From the IMG/VR virus record IMGVR_UViG_3300025112_000257, positions 1-20,010 of that record: a stretch of 20,010 bases of DNA, one strand, 5' to 3'. The position numbers were made by a program, and so were the translations under genes. This DNA is from a virus. The first letter of the stretch is position 1; the number at the start of each line of letters is the position of its first letter. A model generated the notes under the pieces. The model was given only the letters and a program-made list of their open reading frames with translations, did not search any database and had not been told where the DNA came from. Shown here piece after piece: positions 76-16,622 of this stretch.

Positions 76-588
76 GTGGGGATAGTTTGTTACAAACTCT
101 CGGGAATAGAACAGGTGAATAAGAACACAGCAATAAGCCGCCGCAAGCCGAGTGCTCCCACTCAATTCTTGGACGACCAAGGACTGCTCAAGGGGAAACT
201 ATTAGACTTCGGTAGCGGCAGGGGCTTTGATGCCGATCACTATGGGATGACAGCATACGACCCACACTGGAGCCCCGACCCATTGGCCCTTGAAACACAG
301 TATAACACAATCGTGTGTAACTATGTTCTTAATGTGGTTGAGCCCGAGGAGGAGCAAGGCATTTTAGCAAAGGTAGCAAGCCTTCTCTCTCCAGCGGGGT
401 CAGCCTACTTCGCCGTGCGTAGAGACATACCTCGCACCGGTCAACAAGGTCGGGGATGTTGGCAGAGGTGGGTGGAACTGAAATTGCCTGTGGTGACTGA
501 ACGCCGGGGCTTTGTCATCTATAGAATGAACGAGACAAAGGAGGTGGGAAGAATGAAAGTCGGTGATGATTTTGAAGGCAACAAATAA
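76..588 (+). CDS. Small class I SAM-dependent methyltransferase
   Basis: This is a 170-residue protein with a compact Rossmann-type methyltransferase core. Motif I is LLDFGSGRG at about residues 42-50. It is followed by an acidic strand end, YDPH, near 61-64, which would bind the SAM ribose, and by a motif IV-like CNYVLNVV at 81-88. The segment RRKPSAPTQFL just before motif I is typical of small phage methyltransferases of this kind. No target-recognition domain is visible, so the substrate (nucleic acid, protein or small molecule) cannot be named. The start is uncertain. The GTG at 76 lacks a good SD site. A second GTG at 115 would trim 13 residues and still keep the whole conserved core. 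The gene ends seven bases before a tiny membrane-protein gene, in the same transcription direction as everything downstream. The family assignment is firm; the biological role is unknown. Confidence 0.8.
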   Translation: MGIVCYKLSGIEQVNKNTAISRRKPSAPTQFLDDQGLLKGKLLDFGSGRGFDADHYGMTAYDPHWSPDPLALETQYNTIVCNYVLNVVEPEEEQGILAKVASLLSPAGSAYFAVRRDIPRTGQQGRGCWQRWVELKLPVVTERRGFVIYRMNETKEVGRMKVGDDFEGNK

Positions 589-1208: not shown

Positions 1209-2144
1209 GTGAAAATAAAAAGAAAACTGATAAAAGAAGTTGTTCGAAGATTGCTGAAGGAAGAGGGACTCGACGCAGCTAGGCTTCCTCTAAAATTATC
1301 AGATGTTGATCCAGCAGTTGCTAAACAAGTAACTACGACTGGACAAAAAGACGGTGACCCAGAAGATGATAAAATCTCTGTTGCCGCAAAGCCCGAAGGC
1401 ATAAATCCAGTGCAAAAACTTTTCCCGTCACAGTCAAGCATGAATATTCAAAAGGCAATGACTTTTGTTTTACACATGATCGATCACCCTGCTGGAAAAA
1501 TGGACCCAGGTGGAGATCTTGGCGCTTTTATTAGCAAAGACGGATTTATTATGGATGGGCACCATCGGTGGATAGCTACAGCAATGGTAGACCCCACCAA
1601 ACCCGTGGGCGGCTTTTTGGTTCAATTCCCTGGCGAACAATTGGTAGCAATTCTTAACGCCATGACCAAGGGAAGATTTGGCGAGATGGAAGGCAAGCCG
1701 GCTTCGGGCGGCTTTGAGCAGTTTAAAGAAGGTCCGCTCCGTAAGCAATTATATGCTATGGTTAAGGGTGGCATTAGTAAAGAGACGGCCCCGGCTACTT
1801 TTGACCCAAAATGGCAAGGCATGTCCCCAGAAGATGTGCTTGTTGCACTAGAAACCTTTACCCAGAAAAAAGGACAAGATGCTGTGGAAGCAGCAGTCAC
1901 CAAAATGGTAAATAACTTGAGTGGCATAACGATGAAACCGCCAAGCTGGGCACCAAAAAGACCAGATATGCCGGTCGTCGATAAGCCTAATGTTGCCACT
2001 GCTGTTACAGCACTGGATCAAGGCGAAGTTGATTGGAACAAGCCATACCTTAAGCAAGATGGTGGTGGCGAAGAGAAAGCCGTCGCCAACCGTAAAGATA
2101 CAAAATGGAACGGACTTAGCTCGAAAAGCTGGGGAAAACAATGA
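1209..2144 (+). CDS. ParB/sulfiredoxin-fold protein (DGHHRW) with basic leader
   Basis: This is a 311-residue protein. A PSQ motif at residues 73-75 is followed about 40 residues later by DGFIMDGHHRW (residues 111-121). Those are the hallmarks of the ParB/sulfiredoxin nucleotide-binding fold, where the DGHHR loop binds phosphates. Members act as CTPases, nucleases, phosphotransferases or kinases, so the exact reaction cannot be read off. Residues 1-19 (MKIKRKLIKEVVRRLLKEE) form a basic amphipathic helix containing I-K-E and L-K-E. This resembles a T4-type capsid-targeting sequence and the leaders of the genes at 2141 and 12620. The C-terminal 100 residues are proline-, lysine- and glycine-rich and probably flexible. 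The GTG start has a GGGAG SD-like site about 11 bases upstream. The gene overlaps the next one as ATGA. Fold assignment is good; a packaged, injected role is inference. Confidence 0.72.
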   Translation: MKIKRKLIKEVVRRLLKEEGLDAARLPLKLSDVDPAVAKQVTTTGQKDGDPEDDKISVAAKPEGINPVQKLFPSQSSMNIQKAMTFVLHMIDHPAGKMDPGGDLGAFISKDGFIMDGHHRWIATAMVDPTKPVGGFLVQFPGEQLVAILNAMTKGRFGEMEGKPASGGFEQFKEGPLRKQLYAMVKGGISKETAPATFDPKWQGMSPEDVLVALETFTQKKGQDAVEAAVTKMVNNLSGITMKPPSWAPKRPDMPVVDKPNVATAVTALDQGEVDWNKPYLKQDGGGEEKAVANRKDTKWNGLSSKSWGKQ

Positions 2145-2467
2145 AACTGACAAAATCATATCTTAGAGAAGTTATCAAAGAAGAGTTAACAAGCCTCTCG
2201 GAACAACCAGAACAAGAAGAAACACCCCAGGCTCAGACCGACGACAAAGCCGCCAAAAGAGCCGGGAAGTCCGCTGTGGGACTTGCTGATGAACTAGTTG
2301 ACGGGATGTTGCAAAAGTCCGCCAGCCTAGCAAAAAGATTAGAACAACTCCGGACTAGCGACCAAAGAAGACTGGCACTGGCCAGAGCCGTCTTGGTGAA
2401 GATAGTGGGAATGGACCCAGGCAAAATAGATAAAATGCTTCAACTGCTAGTTCAAGGCATGAAATAA
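2141..2467 (+). CDS. Small helical protein with capsid-targeting-like leader
   Basis: This 108-residue protein starts MKLTKSYLREVIKEEL, a basic amphipathic helix with I-K-E at residues 12-14, which matches the (I/L)-x-E cleavage rule of T4-type prohead proteases. A polar, glutamine- and glutamate-rich linker (residues 18-38) follows. The rest is a helical body with alanine- and leucine-rich heptads (about residues 45-105). It is translationally coupled to the ParB-fold gene by an ATGA overlap. It resembles T4 internal proteins in size and design: short leader, cleavage site, small helical basic domain. It shows no detectable enzymatic motif. A scaffold-associated or packaged protein is the best reading. 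Confidence 0.6.
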   Translation: MKLTKSYLREVIKEELTSLSEQPEQEETPQAQTDDKAAKRAGKSAVGLADELVDGMLQKSASLAKRLEQLRTSDQRRLALARAVLVKIVGMDPGKIDKMLQLLVQGMK

Positions 2468-2510: not shown

Positions 2511-2693
2511 ATGCACGAAAAACTAGACCAATGGCTCGGAAAATGGGCATCACGAAAATTAATGGTATGGATGACATCCACCGCTTTCTTGGCGATGGGC
2601 TCTTTAGCTAGCAGCGACTGGGTTGCTGTATCTCTAGCCTACATCGGGCTTCAAGGAGCAGCCGACATAGCGGCTAAGTGGAAGCATGGTTGA
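2511..2693 (+). CDS. Small holin-like membrane protein (60 aa)
   Basis: This 60-residue protein begins MHEKLDQWLGKWASRK. A hydrophobic segment follows at about residues 18-34 (MVWMTSTAFLAMGSLAS). A second, more amphipathic one spans about 36-53 (DWVAVSLAYIGLQGAADIA). It ends in a basic tail, KWKHG. The layout of a charged N-terminus, two short membrane segments with a YIG-x-QGAADI-like second helix, and a basic C-terminus is common among small phage proteins annotated as holin-like. It has a strong SD (AGGAGG) held in a hairpin loop. It is followed with a TGATG overlap by a spanin-like membrane protein. Lysis function is a reasonable guess from this pairing, but no endolysin gene lies in the window. 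Confidence 0.5.
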   Translation: MHEKLDQWLGKWASRKLMVWMTSTAFLAMGSLASSDWVAVSLAYIGLQGAADIAAKWKHG

Positions 2694-3007
2694 TGAAGCG
2701 ATTATGGTACAAGGCCAAAGAACTTTGGTGGAAAGTGGTGCTCGGGATTATTTTTCTCGGCGCACTTCTAATTTATTTTTACCGTCTGCTGAAACCAGCA
2801 GACGATAAAGTAGATTATTTGGAAGCAATAAAAACAGAAGCCACCGCAGCCTTAAAGGAAAACGAGTTGCGTGGTAGACTAGAAAAAGATAACATTGGAG
2901 CAATCAAGGATATCTTCAAAAGTCGTTTGGAAGATACACGAAAAATAGACGACCGAGAAGAACGATTGAGAGCCCTGATCAGACTCCATAAGGAATTAGA
3001 CATTTGA
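2693..3007 (+). CDS. Membrane-anchored coiled-coil protein, spanin-like
   Basis: This 104-residue protein has a short basic N-terminus (MKRLWYKAKELWWK), one transmembrane helix at about residues 15-32 (VVLGIIFLGALLIYFYRL) and a highly charged helical domain with coiled-coil character over residues 40-104. Under the positive-inside rule, the C-terminal domain would face the periplasm. This matches the design of an inner-membrane spanin (Rz-like), and the upstream neighbour is holin-like. The start at 2693 is preferred over an in-frame GTG at 2678 because it makes a TGATG overlap with the preceding stop. No overlapping outer-membrane lipoprotein gene (Rz1) was found, so the spanin label remains tentative. 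Confidence 0.5.
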   Translation: MKRLWYKAKELWWKVVLGIIFLGALLIYFYRLLKPADDKVDYLEAIKTEATAALKENELRGRLEKDNIGAIKDIFKSRLEDTRKIDDREERLRALIRLHKELDI

Positions 3008-3020
3008 GGAGAATAGAAAA

Positions 3021-4154
3021 ATGGTAGACATTCCTACACTAGACATTGAGGATTACGATCCTGATCTAAACGAAGAAGAGGAGGCTGTTGAGGATAAGTC
3101 CGGCGGCGCTCTAACTTATGCTATCGTCGGTGCCGGCCAAGGCGGCGGACGTATGGCTAAGGCGTTTTATGACATGGGCTATACCAAGACGGTTGCCGTT
3201 AACACAGCCCGCTCAGATTTGAACGGGCTAGATCTCCCAGATAACCAGAAGTTCCTCGTTGATGAACACGCTGCCCAGGGAGCCGGCAAAGACCAAGCCA
3301 AAGCTCAAGCAGCTATTGAGAAGAAAGAACAAGAAGTGTTCAACCTTTTCCGAGAGGTTTTTGGAAGCAACGTTGATCGTATTCTTATATGCCTTGGTGT
3401 TTCTGGTGGCTCGGGTGGCGGGTCGGTCAATACTCTTATCAAGGTGGCAAAGAAGTACTTCACTTACATCGGCGTCGAAGACGTAGATAAGCGTGTTGGC
3501 GTTGTTGCATCTCTGCCCACCGCCGGCGAATCTGCTTCTCCAACCGTGGCGAAGAATGCTCACGCCCGCATCACTCAACTTTGCGGGCTCGCAGAAAAAG
3601 GTAAGATTGCTCCCCTTATTATGGTGGACAACGAAAAGATTAAAAAGCTTTATCCCAAACTCACCGTCAAGAAATTTTGGAAGACTATCAATAATACTGT
3701 AGCTGGGCTTTTCCACGTCTTCAACGTTCTGGCGAATCAAGATTCAGAGTACACCACGTTTGATCCAACTGACTACGATAGCATTATGAGTCAGTCAGGG
3801 TGTATGATTATGGGCGTCACCAGCGTAAAGAACTTGGAAAGCGATACTGCTATTTCTAACGCTTTGAAGAAAAACCTCGAAAAGACACTTCTGGCAGAAG
3901 GTTTTGATTTGACCACCGCAACAGGAGCGGCCTGCATTGTTGTCGGCGGCGAAGTAATTTTTGAAGAGACTGTTGGGTTAATGGATAGTATTGAATTTGG
4001 GTTTGATACTTTGGCTGCCTTGACGGGCGGCGCTATTATCCACCGTGGCATCTATGAGGATAGTAATCGGGACAAACTTGTTACCTACACACTTGTTAGT
4101 GGACTTAAACGCCCAGTTAAAAGAATTGAGGGACTGAAAAAGTTCCTAAAGTAA
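3021..4154 (+). CDS. Tubulin/FtsZ-superfamily GTPase
   Basis: This 377-residue protein has the full set of tubulin/FtsZ nucleotide loops. T1 is GAGQGGGR at 37-44, T3 is NTARSDL at 61-67, and the T4 signature GVSGGSGGGS at 126-135 stands in for the usual GGGTG(S/T)G. T5 is SLPTAGE at 164-170 and T6 has VDN near 202-204, whose Asn would contact guanine. The T7 synergy loop is TFDPTD at 246-251, which keeps the two aspartates of the FtsZ NxDxxD motif. All catalytic elements are present, so it should polymerise and hydrolyse GTP. An acidic extension (residues 1-27) precedes the core and a basic tail closes it. There is no obvious FtsZ C-terminal anchoring peptide. The SD GAGGAG is ideal. Known phage relatives (PhuZ, TubZ) position DNA or capsids. 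The location just upstream of the terminase block suggests a role late in infection. Confidence 0.85.
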   Translation: MVDIPTLDIEDYDPDLNEEEEAVEDKSGGALTYAIVGAGQGGGRMAKAFYDMGYTKTVAVNTARSDLNGLDLPDNQKFLVDEHAAQGAGKDQAKAQAAIEKKEQEVFNLFREVFGSNVDRILICLGVSGGSGGGSVNTLIKVAKKYFTYIGVEDVDKRVGVVASLPTAGESASPTVAKNAHARITQLCGLAEKGKIAPLIMVDNEKIKKLYPKLTVKKFWKTINNTVAGLFHVFNVLANQDSEYTTFDPTDYDSIMSQSGCMIMGVTSVKNLESDTAISNALKKNLEKTLLAEGFDLTTATGAACIVVGGEVIFEETVGLMDSIEFGFDTLAALTGGAIIHRGIYEDSNRDKLVTYTLVSGLKRPVKRIEGLKKFLK

Positions 4155-10634: not shown

Positions 10635-10642
10635 TTGTACCG

Positions 10643-10663
10643 TGCGGGTAGCGCCCGCATTTT
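10643..10663 (+). promoter_or_regulatory. GC-rich hairpin upstream of the protease gene
   Basis: TGCGGG (10643-10648) pairs with CCCGCA (10654-10659) around a five-base TAGCG loop and is followed by four T residues (10660-10663). The AGGGAG SD of the protease gene starts at about 10665. The stem is short for an intrinsic terminator and the T tract is minimal, so it may act as a partial terminator or an mRNA-stability or translation-tuning hairpin for the protease. Confidence 0.45.
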
Positions 10664-10676
10664 CAGGGAGAAAAAA

Positions 10677-11273
10677 ATGAATAAGAAATACGTCTTACAA
10701 GAATTTATGAATCTGGATTACAGTGATGATCTTCTCACCGAAGAGGAACGTGAAGGCAATCGCCAGGGCACCCATCTTATCGTGGCTGGCAAAATCCAAG
10801 CCGCAGGCAAGAAGAACGGCAATGGCCGCATTTACCCCAAGCCCATACTTGAGCGGGAAATGAAGAACTACGAAAAGCTAGTCCGAGAGGGGAGAGCTAT
10901 CGGAGAACTTGACCACCCAGACAGTTCAGTTGTAGAACTAAAGAACGCCAGCCATCTCGTCACCGAAGTATGGTGGAACGGGGATGATGTCATGGGCAAG
11001 ATGAAGATTTTAGAGACCCCTGCGGGGCAGATAGCCAAACAACTCGTTGAGGGCGGCGTCCAACTGGGAATATCTAGCCGTGGACTCGGGTCTACCCGCC
11101 AAGAAGGCGGTACCACTATGGTAGAGGATGACTTCCAGCTTCTCTGTTTTGATTTGGTTTCCGAACCAAGCACTACGGGTGCCTATCTTGTGGCAGAAAG
11201 CCAAGTCAAAACCCATCTAACGAAGGCTGACCGCATCAACCGGGCCCTTAACGACGTACTCGGAGACGACTGA
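10677..11273 (+). CDS. gp21: Prohead core protease (T4 gp21-like)
   Basis: This 198-residue serine protease matures the prohead by cleaving scaffold, capsid and internal proteins after (I/L)-x-E. The herpesvirus-assemblin-like fold is marked by GELDHP with catalytic His80 and GISSRGLG with the nucleophile at Ser133/Ser134. FDLVSEPS near 158-165 supplies the third conserved region. NGNGRIYP (48-54) is the typical N-terminal substrate-groove motif. The ATG at 10677 is preferred over the in-frame TTG at 10635 because AGGGAG lies just upstream and the shorter protein matches the roughly 212 residues of T4 gp21. The N-terminus contains L-Q-E (7-9) and L-T-E (20-22), possible self-cleavage sites. 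It overlaps the next gene as TGATG. Identification is firm. Confidence 0.92.
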   Translation: MNKKYVLQEFMNLDYSDDLLTEEEREGNRQGTHLIVAGKIQAAGKKNGNGRIYPKPILEREMKNYEKLVREGRAIGELDHPDSSVVELKNASHLVTEVWWNGDDVMGKMKILETPAGQIAKQLVEGGVQLGISSRGLGSTRQEGGTTMVEDDFQLLCFDLVSEPSTTGAYLVAESQVKTHLTKADRINRALNDVLGDD

Positions 11274-12619: not shown

Positions 12620-13024
12620 ATGAAAAAATCGGAACTAAAAAATATTATTAAAGAATGCGTGAAGGAGGTCATCTTTGAAGAGGGCGTCTTGTCGGGCATT
12701 ATTACGGAAGTGGCTCAAGGACTTCAAGGCTCCACTCCTATAAGAGAGAACAGTATGGCCATCATCGCCGAAGCTAGCAAAAAATCCAACTCATCGCCCG
12801 GTCAAGACGAAACAAGAAAAAAAGTTATGGCAGCCATTGCAAACGATTACTCCGACGTTAAGAATAAATTTTCTAACCCGGCTTTGTTTGAAGGAACAAA
12901 GCCACTCCCCTCGGATAGTAAAGGGGCACTTGCCGGCGTAGCCCCAAGTGATACCGGAATTGATCTGACTTCAATACCGGGGCTTGGGAACTGGTCAAGA
13001 ATTGCCGAGGGCAATAGAAAGTAG
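12620..13024 (+). CDS. Leader-bearing putative internal head protein
   Basis: This 134-residue protein begins MKKSELKNIIKECVKEVIFE, an amphipathic basic-acidic helix with I-K-E at residues 10-12 and I-F-E at 18-20. It is the third protein in the window with such a leader (the others are at 1209 and 2141). A low-complexity, serine- and alanine-rich middle follows, then a C-terminal motif DLTSIPGLGNWSRIAEG (about 115-131). No enzymatic residues are evident. Its late promoter, its position before the scaffold and capsid genes, and the protease-site leader together suggest a prohead-core or packaged protein. The real function is unknown, and the leader could instead be a generic virion-assembly tag. 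Confidence 0.6.
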   Translation: MKKSELKNIIKECVKEVIFEEGVLSGIITEVAQGLQGSTPIRENSMAIIAEASKKSNSSPGQDETRKKVMAAIANDYSDVKNKFSNPALFEGTKPLPSDSKGALAGVAPSDTGIDLTSIPGLGNWSRIAEGNRK

Positions 13025-14861: not shown

Positions 14862-16622
14862 ATGACTATGTTAGATACTCTTACAGAGGGCATCCGACAA
14901 CGTTCCTTAGCCAACGAGGGTGAAGCTCTCCTTGGGAAGTGGGAAAAGACTGGACTCCTAGAGGGCCTGAACGATAATCATCGTTCAACTATGGCTCGTC
15001 TACTGGAGAACCAGGCTGCCCAGCTTCTCAAAGAGCAAACCACAATGGCTGCTGGTGACGTTGAAGGCTTTGCCTCAGTTGCTTTCCCAATTGTTCGCCG
15101 TGTATTCGGTGGTCTTTTGGCACAGGACCTCGTGTCCGTTCAACCGATGAGCCTCCCTAGTGGACTCATCTTCTTCATGGACTTTGCTTTTAGTCCAGAT
15201 TCTGGCATGATTGGTGCCAGTGACGAAAAACATCGTCTTGCTAATGAGGCTGACACTTCCCTTTATGGTGGTGGTGTCGTTGGTCGTGCATTGACTGGTG
15301 GTGTTTCTTTGGCTGATGGCAATCAGGAACTTGGATTCTATTCTTTGAACAATGGCTTCTCTAGCCCGACAGGATCGGACACGGGAGCAGTTGTGGTTTG
15401 GGCTTCGGGTACTTTTGGTGATGCTAATACGAGCCCTGGTGGAAACCTGTGGTCAACGCTTCGTGGCGATCCCGATCTTGTTTCGGGTACATCGACTTAC
15501 GTCATTGCTTCGGCTTCGTTGCCCACTTCTACTGGTGCAAACTTCAAGAACCTTGCCGCATTCGTGCTGTCAGGTTCTGATGGTCGTGGTAATCTTGCCA
15601 GCGGCGCATATCATGCTCGCCGCCTCAATCAGATGAGTGGTTCTGAAACTAGAGTCCTCAATCTGGTTGGTGTTTCTCGTGAAGGAACTCGAAGCGCAGT
15701 TCAAATGTCTGCTTCGATGCTGGGCACTTCCGCCTCTCCCGCAGGTGGAACCCATGGTACGGTTCACTACCCAATCACCGACGAATTTGTCGCCGCTGGC
15801 GATCCTTTCGGCGGAATTCGTGGTGGTAACGGAAACCAGGGATGGAATCTTGAAACATCGCCGGCTATCCCCGAGATAGACATTAAGGTCCAGAGCATCG
15901 CCGTGACAGCCGTCACCAAGAAGCTCAAGGCCAAGTGGAGTCCTGAGCTTGCTCAAGACTTGAATGCTTATCATAACCTCGACGCTGAAGTTGAGCTTAC
16001 AAGCATTCTTTCGGAGCAGATTGCTCTTGAAATCGACCAAGAGATTCTGAATGATCTCGTCGGTGGCGCTAAGGGTGGTACTCTGTACTGGTCTCGTCGC
16101 CCTGGTAGGTTCTTGAATCGTGAAACCGGTGCAGACGTTACTACAAGTCTGGCTCCCGACTTCACAGGTACGGTTAGTGAATGGTACGAGACTCTTCTCG
16201 AAGCCATTAATGACTTGAGTGCTCGTATTCATCGCAAGACTCTTCGTGGTGGCGCAAACTTCGTGGTTTGCTCTCCTGAGGTGGCTTCGTTGCTTGAGTT
16301 CACAAGTGGGTTTAAGGCGAATATCGCCTCTGACGAAGATAAGGGCTCCTGGGGTGCCGTCAATGTTGGTTCTTTGAGCCGCAAGATGGACATTTATGTT
16401 GATCCTTACTTCACCCGTAACCTTCTTCTGGTCGGACGTAAGGGAAGCAGCTTCTTAGAAAGCGGCTATGTTTACGCTCCGTATGTGCCACTGCAAGTGA
16501 CACCCACCATCTTTGGTGTCGAAGACTTCGTGCCCCGCAAGGGCGTGATGACTCGTTATGCCAAGCAAATGGTGCGTCCAGATATGTACGGACTTGTTGT
16601 TGTGGCTGATTTGGTTGGTTAA
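14862..16622 (+). CDS. gp23: Major capsid protein (T4 gp23-like)
   Basis: This 586-residue HK97-fold protein forms the hexamers of the head. T4 gp23 landmarks include PIVRRVFGGLLAQDLVSVQPM (about 75-95), KKLKAKWSPELAQDLNAYH with LDAEVELTSILSEQIALEI following it, and GANFVVCSP. The C-terminal block KMDIYVDPYFTRNLLLVGRKG is followed by YVYAPYVPL and RYAKQMVRPDMYG. The N-terminal 58-65 residues are a scaffold-binding propeptide. Likely protease sites are L-L-E at 47-49 and L-K-E at 56-58, near the T4 cleavage after residue 65. An SD (AAGGAG) is 14-19 bases upstream. Codon use is visibly richer in G/C-ending codons than its neighbours, in keeping with high expression. A hairpin and a strong terminator follow. 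Identification is firm. Confidence 0.95.
   Translation: MTMLDTLTEGIRQRSLANEGEALLGKWEKTGLLEGLNDNHRSTMARLLENQAAQLLKEQTTMAAGDVEGFASVAFPIVRRVFGGLLAQDLVSVQPMSLPSGLIFFMDFAFSPDSGMIGASDEKHRLANEADTSLYGGGVVGRALTGGVSLADGNQELGFYSLNNGFSSPTGSDTGAVVVWASGTFGDANTSPGGNLWSTLRGDPDLVSGTSTYVIASASLPTSTGANFKNLAAFVLSGSDGRGNLASGAYHARRLNQMSGSETRVLNLVGVSREGTRSAVQMSASMLGTSASPAGGTHGTVHYPITDEFVAAGDPFGGIRGGNGNQGWNLETSPAIPEIDIKVQSIAVTAVTKKLKAKWSPELAQDLNAYHNLDAEVELTSILSEQIALEIDQEILNDLVGGAKGGTLYWSRRPGRFLNRETGADVTTSLAPDFTGTVSEWYETLLEAINDLSARIHRKTLRGGANFVVCSPEVASLLEFTSGFKANIASDEDKGSWGAVNVGSLSRKMDIYVDPYFTRNLLLVGRKGSSFLESGYVYAPYVPLQVTPTIFGVEDFVPRKGVMTRYAKQMVRPDMYGLVVVADLVG

What the first reader, a model, noticed from the sequence alone, without database searches (positions are those of the whole stretch)
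1209..2144. DGHHRW ParB-fold protein as a possible injected effector
The protein combines a ParB/sulfiredoxin-type phosphate-binding motif with a putative capsid-targeting leader and a long disordered basic C-terminus. It does not sit with replication or partition genes. A ParB-fold enzyme delivered with the genome could modify host proteins or protect or cleave DNA on entry.
Basis: inference. Interest (0 to 1): 0.6.

Follow-up and report, generated by a model that had tools for sequence, protein, structure and literature searches.

The report
Phage head-packaged ParB-fold enzyme, likely injected
A marine phage gene encodes a ParB/sulfiredoxin-fold protein with a short removable-looking front tag that appears to load it into the phage head, and the same kind of tag sits on at least 30 unrelated protein families, including several predicted enzymes, in related phages, so these viruses may carry a swappable set of proteins to inject into bacteria.

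Summary
The ORF at 1209-2144 is a real, conserved gene (191 relatives found in IMG/VR; DGHHRW invariant in the 80 kept). AlphaFold2 (mean pLDDT 89.7) gives a ParB/sulfiredoxin-like core: the 20 best PDB rows all belong to that superfamily (Z only 3.3-4.6), and annotated phage ParB/Srx proteins are the best viral matches. It fails Pfam's ParB and ParBc_2 models, so it is a separate branch. The 'long disordered basic C-terminus' is wrong: the tail is about 29 residues with net charge +2. Leaders differ between members but end at an aligned [LIVFMY]-x-E in 53 of 57, matching the (L/I)-x-E sites conserved in the MCP and in the T4-gp21-family protease of the same head module. Homologues in phages without gp23 and that protease have no such leader. 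A strict form of one leader type starts 44 proteins in about 30 unrelated families, including a protein-kinase domain, a zeta-toxin-like P-loop kinase, 2H phosphoesterases, a cytidylyltransferase and DGHHRW paralogues. Best reading: prohead-core cargo, cleaved and injected, acting by nucleotide-dependent phosphotransfer or hydrolysis. Packaging, injection and catalysis are inferred, not shown.

The parts
1209..2144 (+). DGHHRW ParB/sulfiredoxin-fold protein, 311 aa, GTG start
1209..1262 (+). Predicted capsid-targeting propeptide, residues 1-18 (MKIKRKLIKEVVRRLLKE), predicted cleavage LKE18|E19
   Evidence: aligned [LIVFMY]xE junction in 53/57 members; swappable leader types; gp21-family protease in same module
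1281..2054 (+). Conserved folded core, residues 25-282 (ParB/Srx core about 58-165 plus conserved helical and C-terminal extension)
   Evidence: AF2 pLDDT mostly above 90; VIA rows span 48-266; conserved columns
1419..1448 (+). Box I-like motif LFPSQSSMNI (family consensus LKPSQSSMNI), Q75 invariant
   Evidence: matches LRPTQ of ParBc_2 in hhalign
1554..1571 (+). P-motif DGHHRW (residues 116-121), at the N-terminus of helix 118-127
   Evidence: invariant in 81 sequences; identical in the PDB free serine kinase 5x0j, though that sequence match is sub-threshold
2055..2141 (+). Short low-confidence tail, residues 283-311
   Evidence: pLDDT below 50 for most of it; composition
2141..2467 (+). Next gene: small protein with the common MKLTKxxLRxxIKEEL leader
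10635..11273 (+). Prohead protease, Peptidase_S77 (T4 gp21 family), the candidate processing enzyme
   Evidence: Pfam PF03420 E 7.1e-29; phrog_207
12620..13024 (+). Small head-module protein with a conserved leader ending (I/L)(F/L)E, often next to the ParB-like gene in relatives
14862..16622 (+). gp23-type major capsid protein; conserved (L)xE processing site, LLKE58|Q59 here
   Evidence: phrog_138; MCP alignment

Best explanation
The gene encodes a virion-packaged enzyme of the ParB/sulfiredoxin superfamily. Its amphipathic N-terminal leader docks it in the prohead core. The gp21-family (S77) protease then cuts after LKE18, leaving a 293-residue protein inside the head, which is ejected with the DNA. 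In the new host the DGHHRW loop would bind a nucleotide phosphate and metal and carry out phosphotransfer or phosphoester hydrolysis on a host or DNA target. Shown by computation: the fold, the conserved loop, the conserved cleavage triad, the head-module position in gp23-type phages, the co-variation of leader with gp23/S77, and the sharing of such leaders by unrelated proteins. Inferred: packaging, cleavage, ejection, nucleotide binding and the reaction. The target is unknown.
For: Fold: AF2 pLDDT 89.7; the 20 best VIA rows are all ParB/Srx superfamily; BFVD ParB/Sulfiredoxin proteins, best E 3.7e-10. Loop: DGHHRW invariant. Leader: [LIVFMY]xE at the aligned junction in 53/57 despite heterologous leaders. 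Same triad in the MCP (LL(R/K)E) and in the protease N-terminus; protease is S77. Co-variation: the gp23-positive long contigs carry a leader on the ParB-like protein and 10 of 11 show S77 (the eleventh, G055, is an 85-kb fragment whose member starts with a short LFE-type leader); two leaderless genomes (257 kb, 126 kb) lack gp23, S77 and all leader motifs proteome-wide. Sharing: motif A N-terminal in 8 proteins of one 151-kb phage against 1 internal match in all its proteins; a strict DNA form of the leader begins 44 proteins in about 30 families including Pkinase 3.5e-7, Zeta_toxin 1e-13, tRNA_lig_CPD 3.5e-7; on other tagged proteins 2H-SAK 1e-19 and CTP_transf_like 1.8e-4. A relative (L332) has the ParB-like gene followed by five genes with MKKLLTEWRKFLKE-like starts and, further on, a run of MKITKSQLRKIIKEEL-like starts. 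Precedent: T4 CTS and injected Alt/IPs (PMC9958956); P1 DdrB ParB domain protein packaged in the head (PMC5512222).
Against: No virion proteomics for any member. VIA Z-scores are low (3.3-4.6) and sequence profiles do not reach any ParB family. Residue Q75 stands near where SerK has its catalytic glutamate (by eye, not aligned structurally), so a kinase mechanism is uncertain. The window protein's own leader is a divergent version of the common type. Two contigs with leaders (G002, G003) show neither gp23 nor S77, though they may be fragments. Some members lie outside the head module. Leader classes were found with hand-written patterns. Five leaderless contigs, two of them near-duplicates, are a small and phylogenetically confounded contrast.
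Confidence: 0.55

Rival explanations
1. It is prohead-core cargo but acts in head assembly or maturation (a scaffold-associated or core structural protein), not as an effector in the host.
For: Gene lies directly downstream of the prohead protease and beside small core-like genes in many relatives; the leader/cleavage logic is the same for core proteins; the scaffold-like protein of L078 carries the same C-terminal RWxxLAG module.
Against: An enzyme-type P-motif loop is invariant; gene is accessory, absent from a 190-kb contig with the same MCP family (G048); position in the genome varies and it can sit among other tagged cargo.
Confidence: 0.2
2. It is a cytoplasmic ParB-type DNA or NTP switch, perhaps working with the TubZ/FtsZ-like GTPase encoded 0.9 kb downstream in segregation or capsid positioning; the leader has another role.
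For: TubZ-like gene nearby here and in some relatives; ParB/Srx fold.
Against: No match to the ParB_N model and hhalign probability 3.6% to canonical ParB; the TubZ-like gene is missing from most ParB-bearing long contigs (5 of 17 hits, one of them marginal); does not explain the xxE junction or the shared leaders.
Confidence: 0.12
3. It is a virion or packaging-associated nuclease of the Tox-ParB/ParBc_2 type, nicking host or competitor DNA.
For: DGHHR is the motif reported for Tox-ParB toxins (PMC3482391); top structural row 2hwj is a ParBc_2 protein; box I PSQ resembles PTQ; polyvalent DdrB-like ParB domains are proposed DNases.
Against: Fails the ParBc_2 model; ParB nuclease activity is disputed in the same literature. 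This is a sub-hypothesis of the best explanation that differs in the chemistry.
Confidence: 0.13

Closest known systems
T4 internal proteins IPI-III and Alt with their capsid targeting sequence, processed by gp21
   Same: short N-terminal propeptide ending before a Glu cleavage site; gp21-family protease and gp23-type MCP in the same phage; non-essential cargo-like genes
   Different: leader sequences differ (MKLLMENWRKFLKE or MKITKxxLRxIIKEE types); cargo is ParB/Srx fold, not ART or IPI
DdrB-like ParB domains of phage polyvalent proteins (phage P1 DdrB)
   Same: ParB/Srx-superfamily domain near virion genes, predicted injected; P1 DdrB is processed and packaged
   Different: stand-alone single-domain protein with its own leader; DGHHRW motif; processing predicted by S77 protease in trans rather than an MPTase domain; no direct profile comparison made
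ParBc_2 (PF08857; PDB 2hwj) and Tox-ParB toxin domains
   Same: box I P(S/T)Q and a DGHH/DHHH loop; 2hwj is the top structural row
   Different: phage family scores below the Pfam cut-off; hhalign aligns box I only; different C-terminal half
Free serine kinases SerK and SbnI
   Same: SerK 5x0j carries the identical DGHHRW; both appear among the structural rows (Z 3.3-3.6)
   Different: sequence match is sub-threshold; catalytic Glu not conserved as judged by eye; no serine kinase assay
PHROG 2859
   Same: all 57 aligned members match it (best E 2e-12)
   Different: 740-position family of unknown function; only about 110 positions aligned

Membership tests
ParB/sulfiredoxin superfamily | alpha+beta ParB/Srx core fold | tested here: met
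   AF2 model; all 20 best VIA rows are ParB/Srx superfamily, Z 3.3-4.6; BFVD ParB/Sulfiredoxin matches. Moderate strength.
ParB/sulfiredoxin superfamily | phosphate-binding loop with conserved Arg (GxxR type) | tested here: met
   DGHHRW invariant in 81 sequences, at start of helix 118-127
ParB/sulfiredoxin superfamily | nucleotide binding or hydrolysis | not testable with these tools
   needs purified protein
Canonical ParB partition CTPase (PF02195) | match to ParB_N profile | tested here: not met
   no Pfam hit at E<=1; none among 57 members; hhalign 3.6%
Canonical ParB partition CTPase (PF02195) | adjacent parA | tested here: inconclusive
   no ParA-like Pfam hit among the window genes scanned; not every gene scanned, but a TubZ-like GTPase is present
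ParBc_2 / Tox-ParB (PF08857) | score above Pfam gathering cut-off | tested here: not met
   no hit for the window protein or members; paralogue L009:8771 E 0.15; hhalign 31%, box I only
Free serine kinase (SerK/SbnI) | sequence homology over the domain | tested here: not met
   5x0j E 0.71, 12 residues only; structural rows Z 3.3-3.6
T4-type capsid-targeted core protein | N-terminal propeptide ending at a (L/I)xE site used by the phage's gp21-type protease | tested here: met
   sequence level only: 53/57; S77 protease; same triad in MCP and protease
T4-type capsid-targeted core protein | presence in virion and cleavage in vivo | not testable with these tools
   needs virion mass spectrometry
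DdrB-like ParB polyvalent protein | DdrB-type ParB profile match | not tested
   no DdrB alignment was built

The most novel reading that the evidence does not exclude
Marine and other T4-type phages use portable N-terminal leaders (MKLLMENWRxFLxE and MKITKxxLRxIIKEEL types, sometimes with C-terminal modules) as general capsid-targeting tags to load a variable arsenal of unrelated proteins, many predicted enzymes (ParB/Srx DGHHRW, protein kinase, zeta-like kinase, 2H phosphoesterase, cytidylyltransferase and others), into the head for injection; the window gene is one member.
Probability: 0.5. Interest if true: 0.85.

Novelty: new variant of a known kind. Interest (0 to 1): 0.66.

Why it matters
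Which proteins phages inject with their DNA is known for a handful of model phages. A recognisable tag with a cleavage site would let injected proteins be read straight from sequence in thousands of uncultured ocean phages, give a list of candidate host-takeover and counter-defence enzymes, and offer a packaging tag to test in laboratory phages. The DGHHRW family would be a widespread ParB/Srx-fold candidate in that set.

Tried and rejected
Pfam gave no family for the protein. PDB sequence search gave only sub-threshold hits. Foldseek against PDB gave no E<=0.001 hit; VIA was needed. A first hhalign run used a wrong flag and gave nothing; rerun. Cultured-phage search found only distant relatives (Microcystis phage Mel-JY01, Chryseobacterium phage MA9V-1, Aeromonas phage avDM6, a 735-kb uncultured phage). 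The genome-contig scan found one relative in a Methylococcaceae MAG, possibly a misbinned phage contig, so no host claim is made. The idea that the tagged neighbour L009:9640 is an ADP-ribosyltransferase like Alt could not be confirmed: no Pfam hit and a poor model (pLDDT 56). Partition with the TubZ-like gene was considered and made unlikely by poor co-occurrence. Absence of the gene from many MCP relatives was not over-read, since most of those contigs are fragments that do not cover the region. The literature library held no relevant paper with the leader strings tried.

Full report
What is there. The ORF 1209-2144 encodes 311 residues from a GTG start. No Pfam family matches; PHROG 2859, of unknown function, matches weakly (E 2.7e-07) and matches all 57 members of the family alignment. 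A scan of IMG/VR found 191 stretches encoding relatives, of which 80 loci were kept, at 33-75% identity. In 81 sequences IMDGHHRW is invariant, as are D54, Q75, M254-P255 and G272 where the sequence covers them. The gene is therefore real and under selection.

Fold. AlphaFold2 with the 57-sequence alignment gives pLDDT 89.7, with low confidence only in the leader and in residues 286-311. Foldseek against PDB gives no strong hit, with ParB-type chains at the top. In VIA the 20 best rows are all ParB/Srx-superfamily entries (2hwj, pNOB8 ParB-N, sulfiredoxin, ParB, Noc, SerK, KorB, SbnI) at Z 3.3-4.6; the next unrelated row has Z 2.9. Individually these Z values are low; the uniformity of the list carries the weight. 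BFVD gives annotated phage ParB/Sulfiredoxin proteins (best E 3.7e-10, TM 0.59). The top PDB row 2hwj is itself a ParBc_2 protein. Profile comparison with ParBc_2 aligns only box I (LKPSQ with LRPTQ; probability 31%) and with canonical ParB only the P motif (3.6%). So the family lies in the ParB/Srx superfamily but not in those Pfam families. SerK (5x0j) has the identical DGHHRW loop. Tox-ParB toxins are reported to have a DGHHR motif predicted to be a metal site (PMC3482391). A 2025 survey shows diverse NTP binding in orphan ParB folds, including phage proteins, and that specificity cannot be predicted from sequence (PMC12704722).

Only 29 residues are low-confidence and 241-311 has K+R 12 against D+E 9; residues 241-280 are conserved.

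Leader. The N-termini of family members are not homologous throughout: some begin MKxTxxxLRxxIxEE, some KLLMENWRxFxxE, some have longer helices. They converge on an aligned [LIVFMY]-x-E in front of a conserved (x)A(D/N)P segment: 53 of 57 have the triad within the junction, against an expected 12.6% for a 12-residue span of the core. In the window it is LKE18. The same phages have a Peptidase_S77 prohead protease (PF03420, 7e-29), the T4 gp21 family. T4, phiKZ and SPN3US proteases all cleave after Glu in an x-x-E motif (PMC5694885). The MCP family has a conserved LL(R/K)E site and the protease N-termini a conserved (L/I)xE. So three head-module proteins share the triad.

Co-variation. Eleven long contigs with gp23-type MCP all have an xxE-ending leader on their ParB-like protein (short, LFE type, in G055), and ten show S77. 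The leaderless homologues belong to contigs without gp23 and S77 (G012 257 kb, G013 126 kb, G050, G017, G052). Across whole contigs, leader-type motifs are N-terminal in 13 of 150 genes of G001, 11 of 227 in G009 and 9 of 170 in G005 (each with at most a few internal chance matches), and in none of 317 and 125 genes of G012 and G013. Caveats: two leader-bearing contigs (G002, G003) show neither gene and may be fragments; the contrast is small and phylogenetically confounded; at least one pattern match in G003 and one in G005 looks spurious.

Cargo diversity. A strict degenerate DNA pattern for MKL(L/I)MENWRx(F/Y)xxE was found in 40 stretches of viral contigs. Translated, it begins 44 proteins which fall into about 30 unrelated families once the leader is removed. 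Residue 12 is L, I or V in all 44, although the pattern would also have allowed F or M, and the residue after the Glu is mostly E, G, D or A, of which the pattern itself fixes a first base G. Pfam finds Pkinase (3.5e-7, just under cut-off), Zeta_toxin-like (1e-13) and tRNA_lig_CPD (3.5e-7), and on other tagged proteins 2H-SAK (1e-19) and CTP_transf_like (1.8e-4). DGHHRW paralogues are among the cargo (L298, L311). In a near relative (TubZ-like protein 91% identical) the ParB-like gene heads a block: five genes with MKKLLTEWRKFLKE-like starts, and a few genes further on a run with MKITKSQLRKIIKEEL-like starts. ParB, 2H and ART domains are part of the repertoire listed for phage polyvalent, virion-delivered proteins, and P1 DdrB, with its ParB domain, is packaged in processed form (PMC5512222).

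Genome context. In relatives the gene is most often in the head module, for example directly after the prohead protease or beside the MCP, but also near terminase or elsewhere. It is usually single-copy, sometimes tandem. It is accessory: a 190-kb contig with the same MCP family lacks it (G048).

Mechanism. Most likely the precursor joins the prohead core through its leader, is cut after LKE18, travels in the head and is ejected with the DNA, where the DGHHRW site binds nucleotide and metal. Whether it phosphorylates, dephosphorylates or nicks is open; Q75 near the SerK glutamate position (by eye) argues against a simple copy of SerK chemistry, and ParBc_2/Tox-ParB is the nearest structural branch. 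Packaging, ejection and chemistry are inferences.

Verdict.

Noticed in passing
window 3021-4154: TubZ/FtsZ-like GTPase gene (Pfam Tubulin 9e-9, TubZ-like_C 1e-7) inside the head/packaging region; in several relatives it sits directly before the prohead protease. Present in only some ParB-bearing contigs.
   Followed up: partly
[quoted passage not shown] here it is on the same strand as the head genes, not the opposite one.
   Followed up: partly
L332:6699-16017: Block of genes starting with two kinds of shared leader in a near relative, beginning with the ParB-like gene, which there carries an extra C-terminal HNCKNPGPKTKARYWSCKAW domain (phrog_7595-like by eye).
   Followed up: partly
L061, L069, L078, L080 and others, C-termini: A C-terminal module E-R-W-x-x-L-A-G-(L/I) recurs on ParB-like proteins, a HAD/DUF2608-like neighbour and a scaffold-like protein; other members end in a leader-like ISKERLQEIIKEEL. 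T4 Alt is also reported to be processed at both ends (PMC5694885).
   Followed up: partly
L009:8771-9664, L053:6872-7867, L058:8975-9874, L061:5551-6747: Diverged second DGHHRW paralogues, or PHROG 2859 relatives, next to or near the main gene in several phages.
   Followed up: partly
window 2511-2693 and 2678-3007: Small membrane protein and single-TM coiled-coil protein (holin/spanin-like by eye) that recur beside the ParB-like gene even in phages where it lies outside the head module.
   Followed up: no
window 76-588: Partial methyltransferase-like protein (Methyltransf_23 6e-5, below cut-off) near the left edge of the contig.
   Followed up: no
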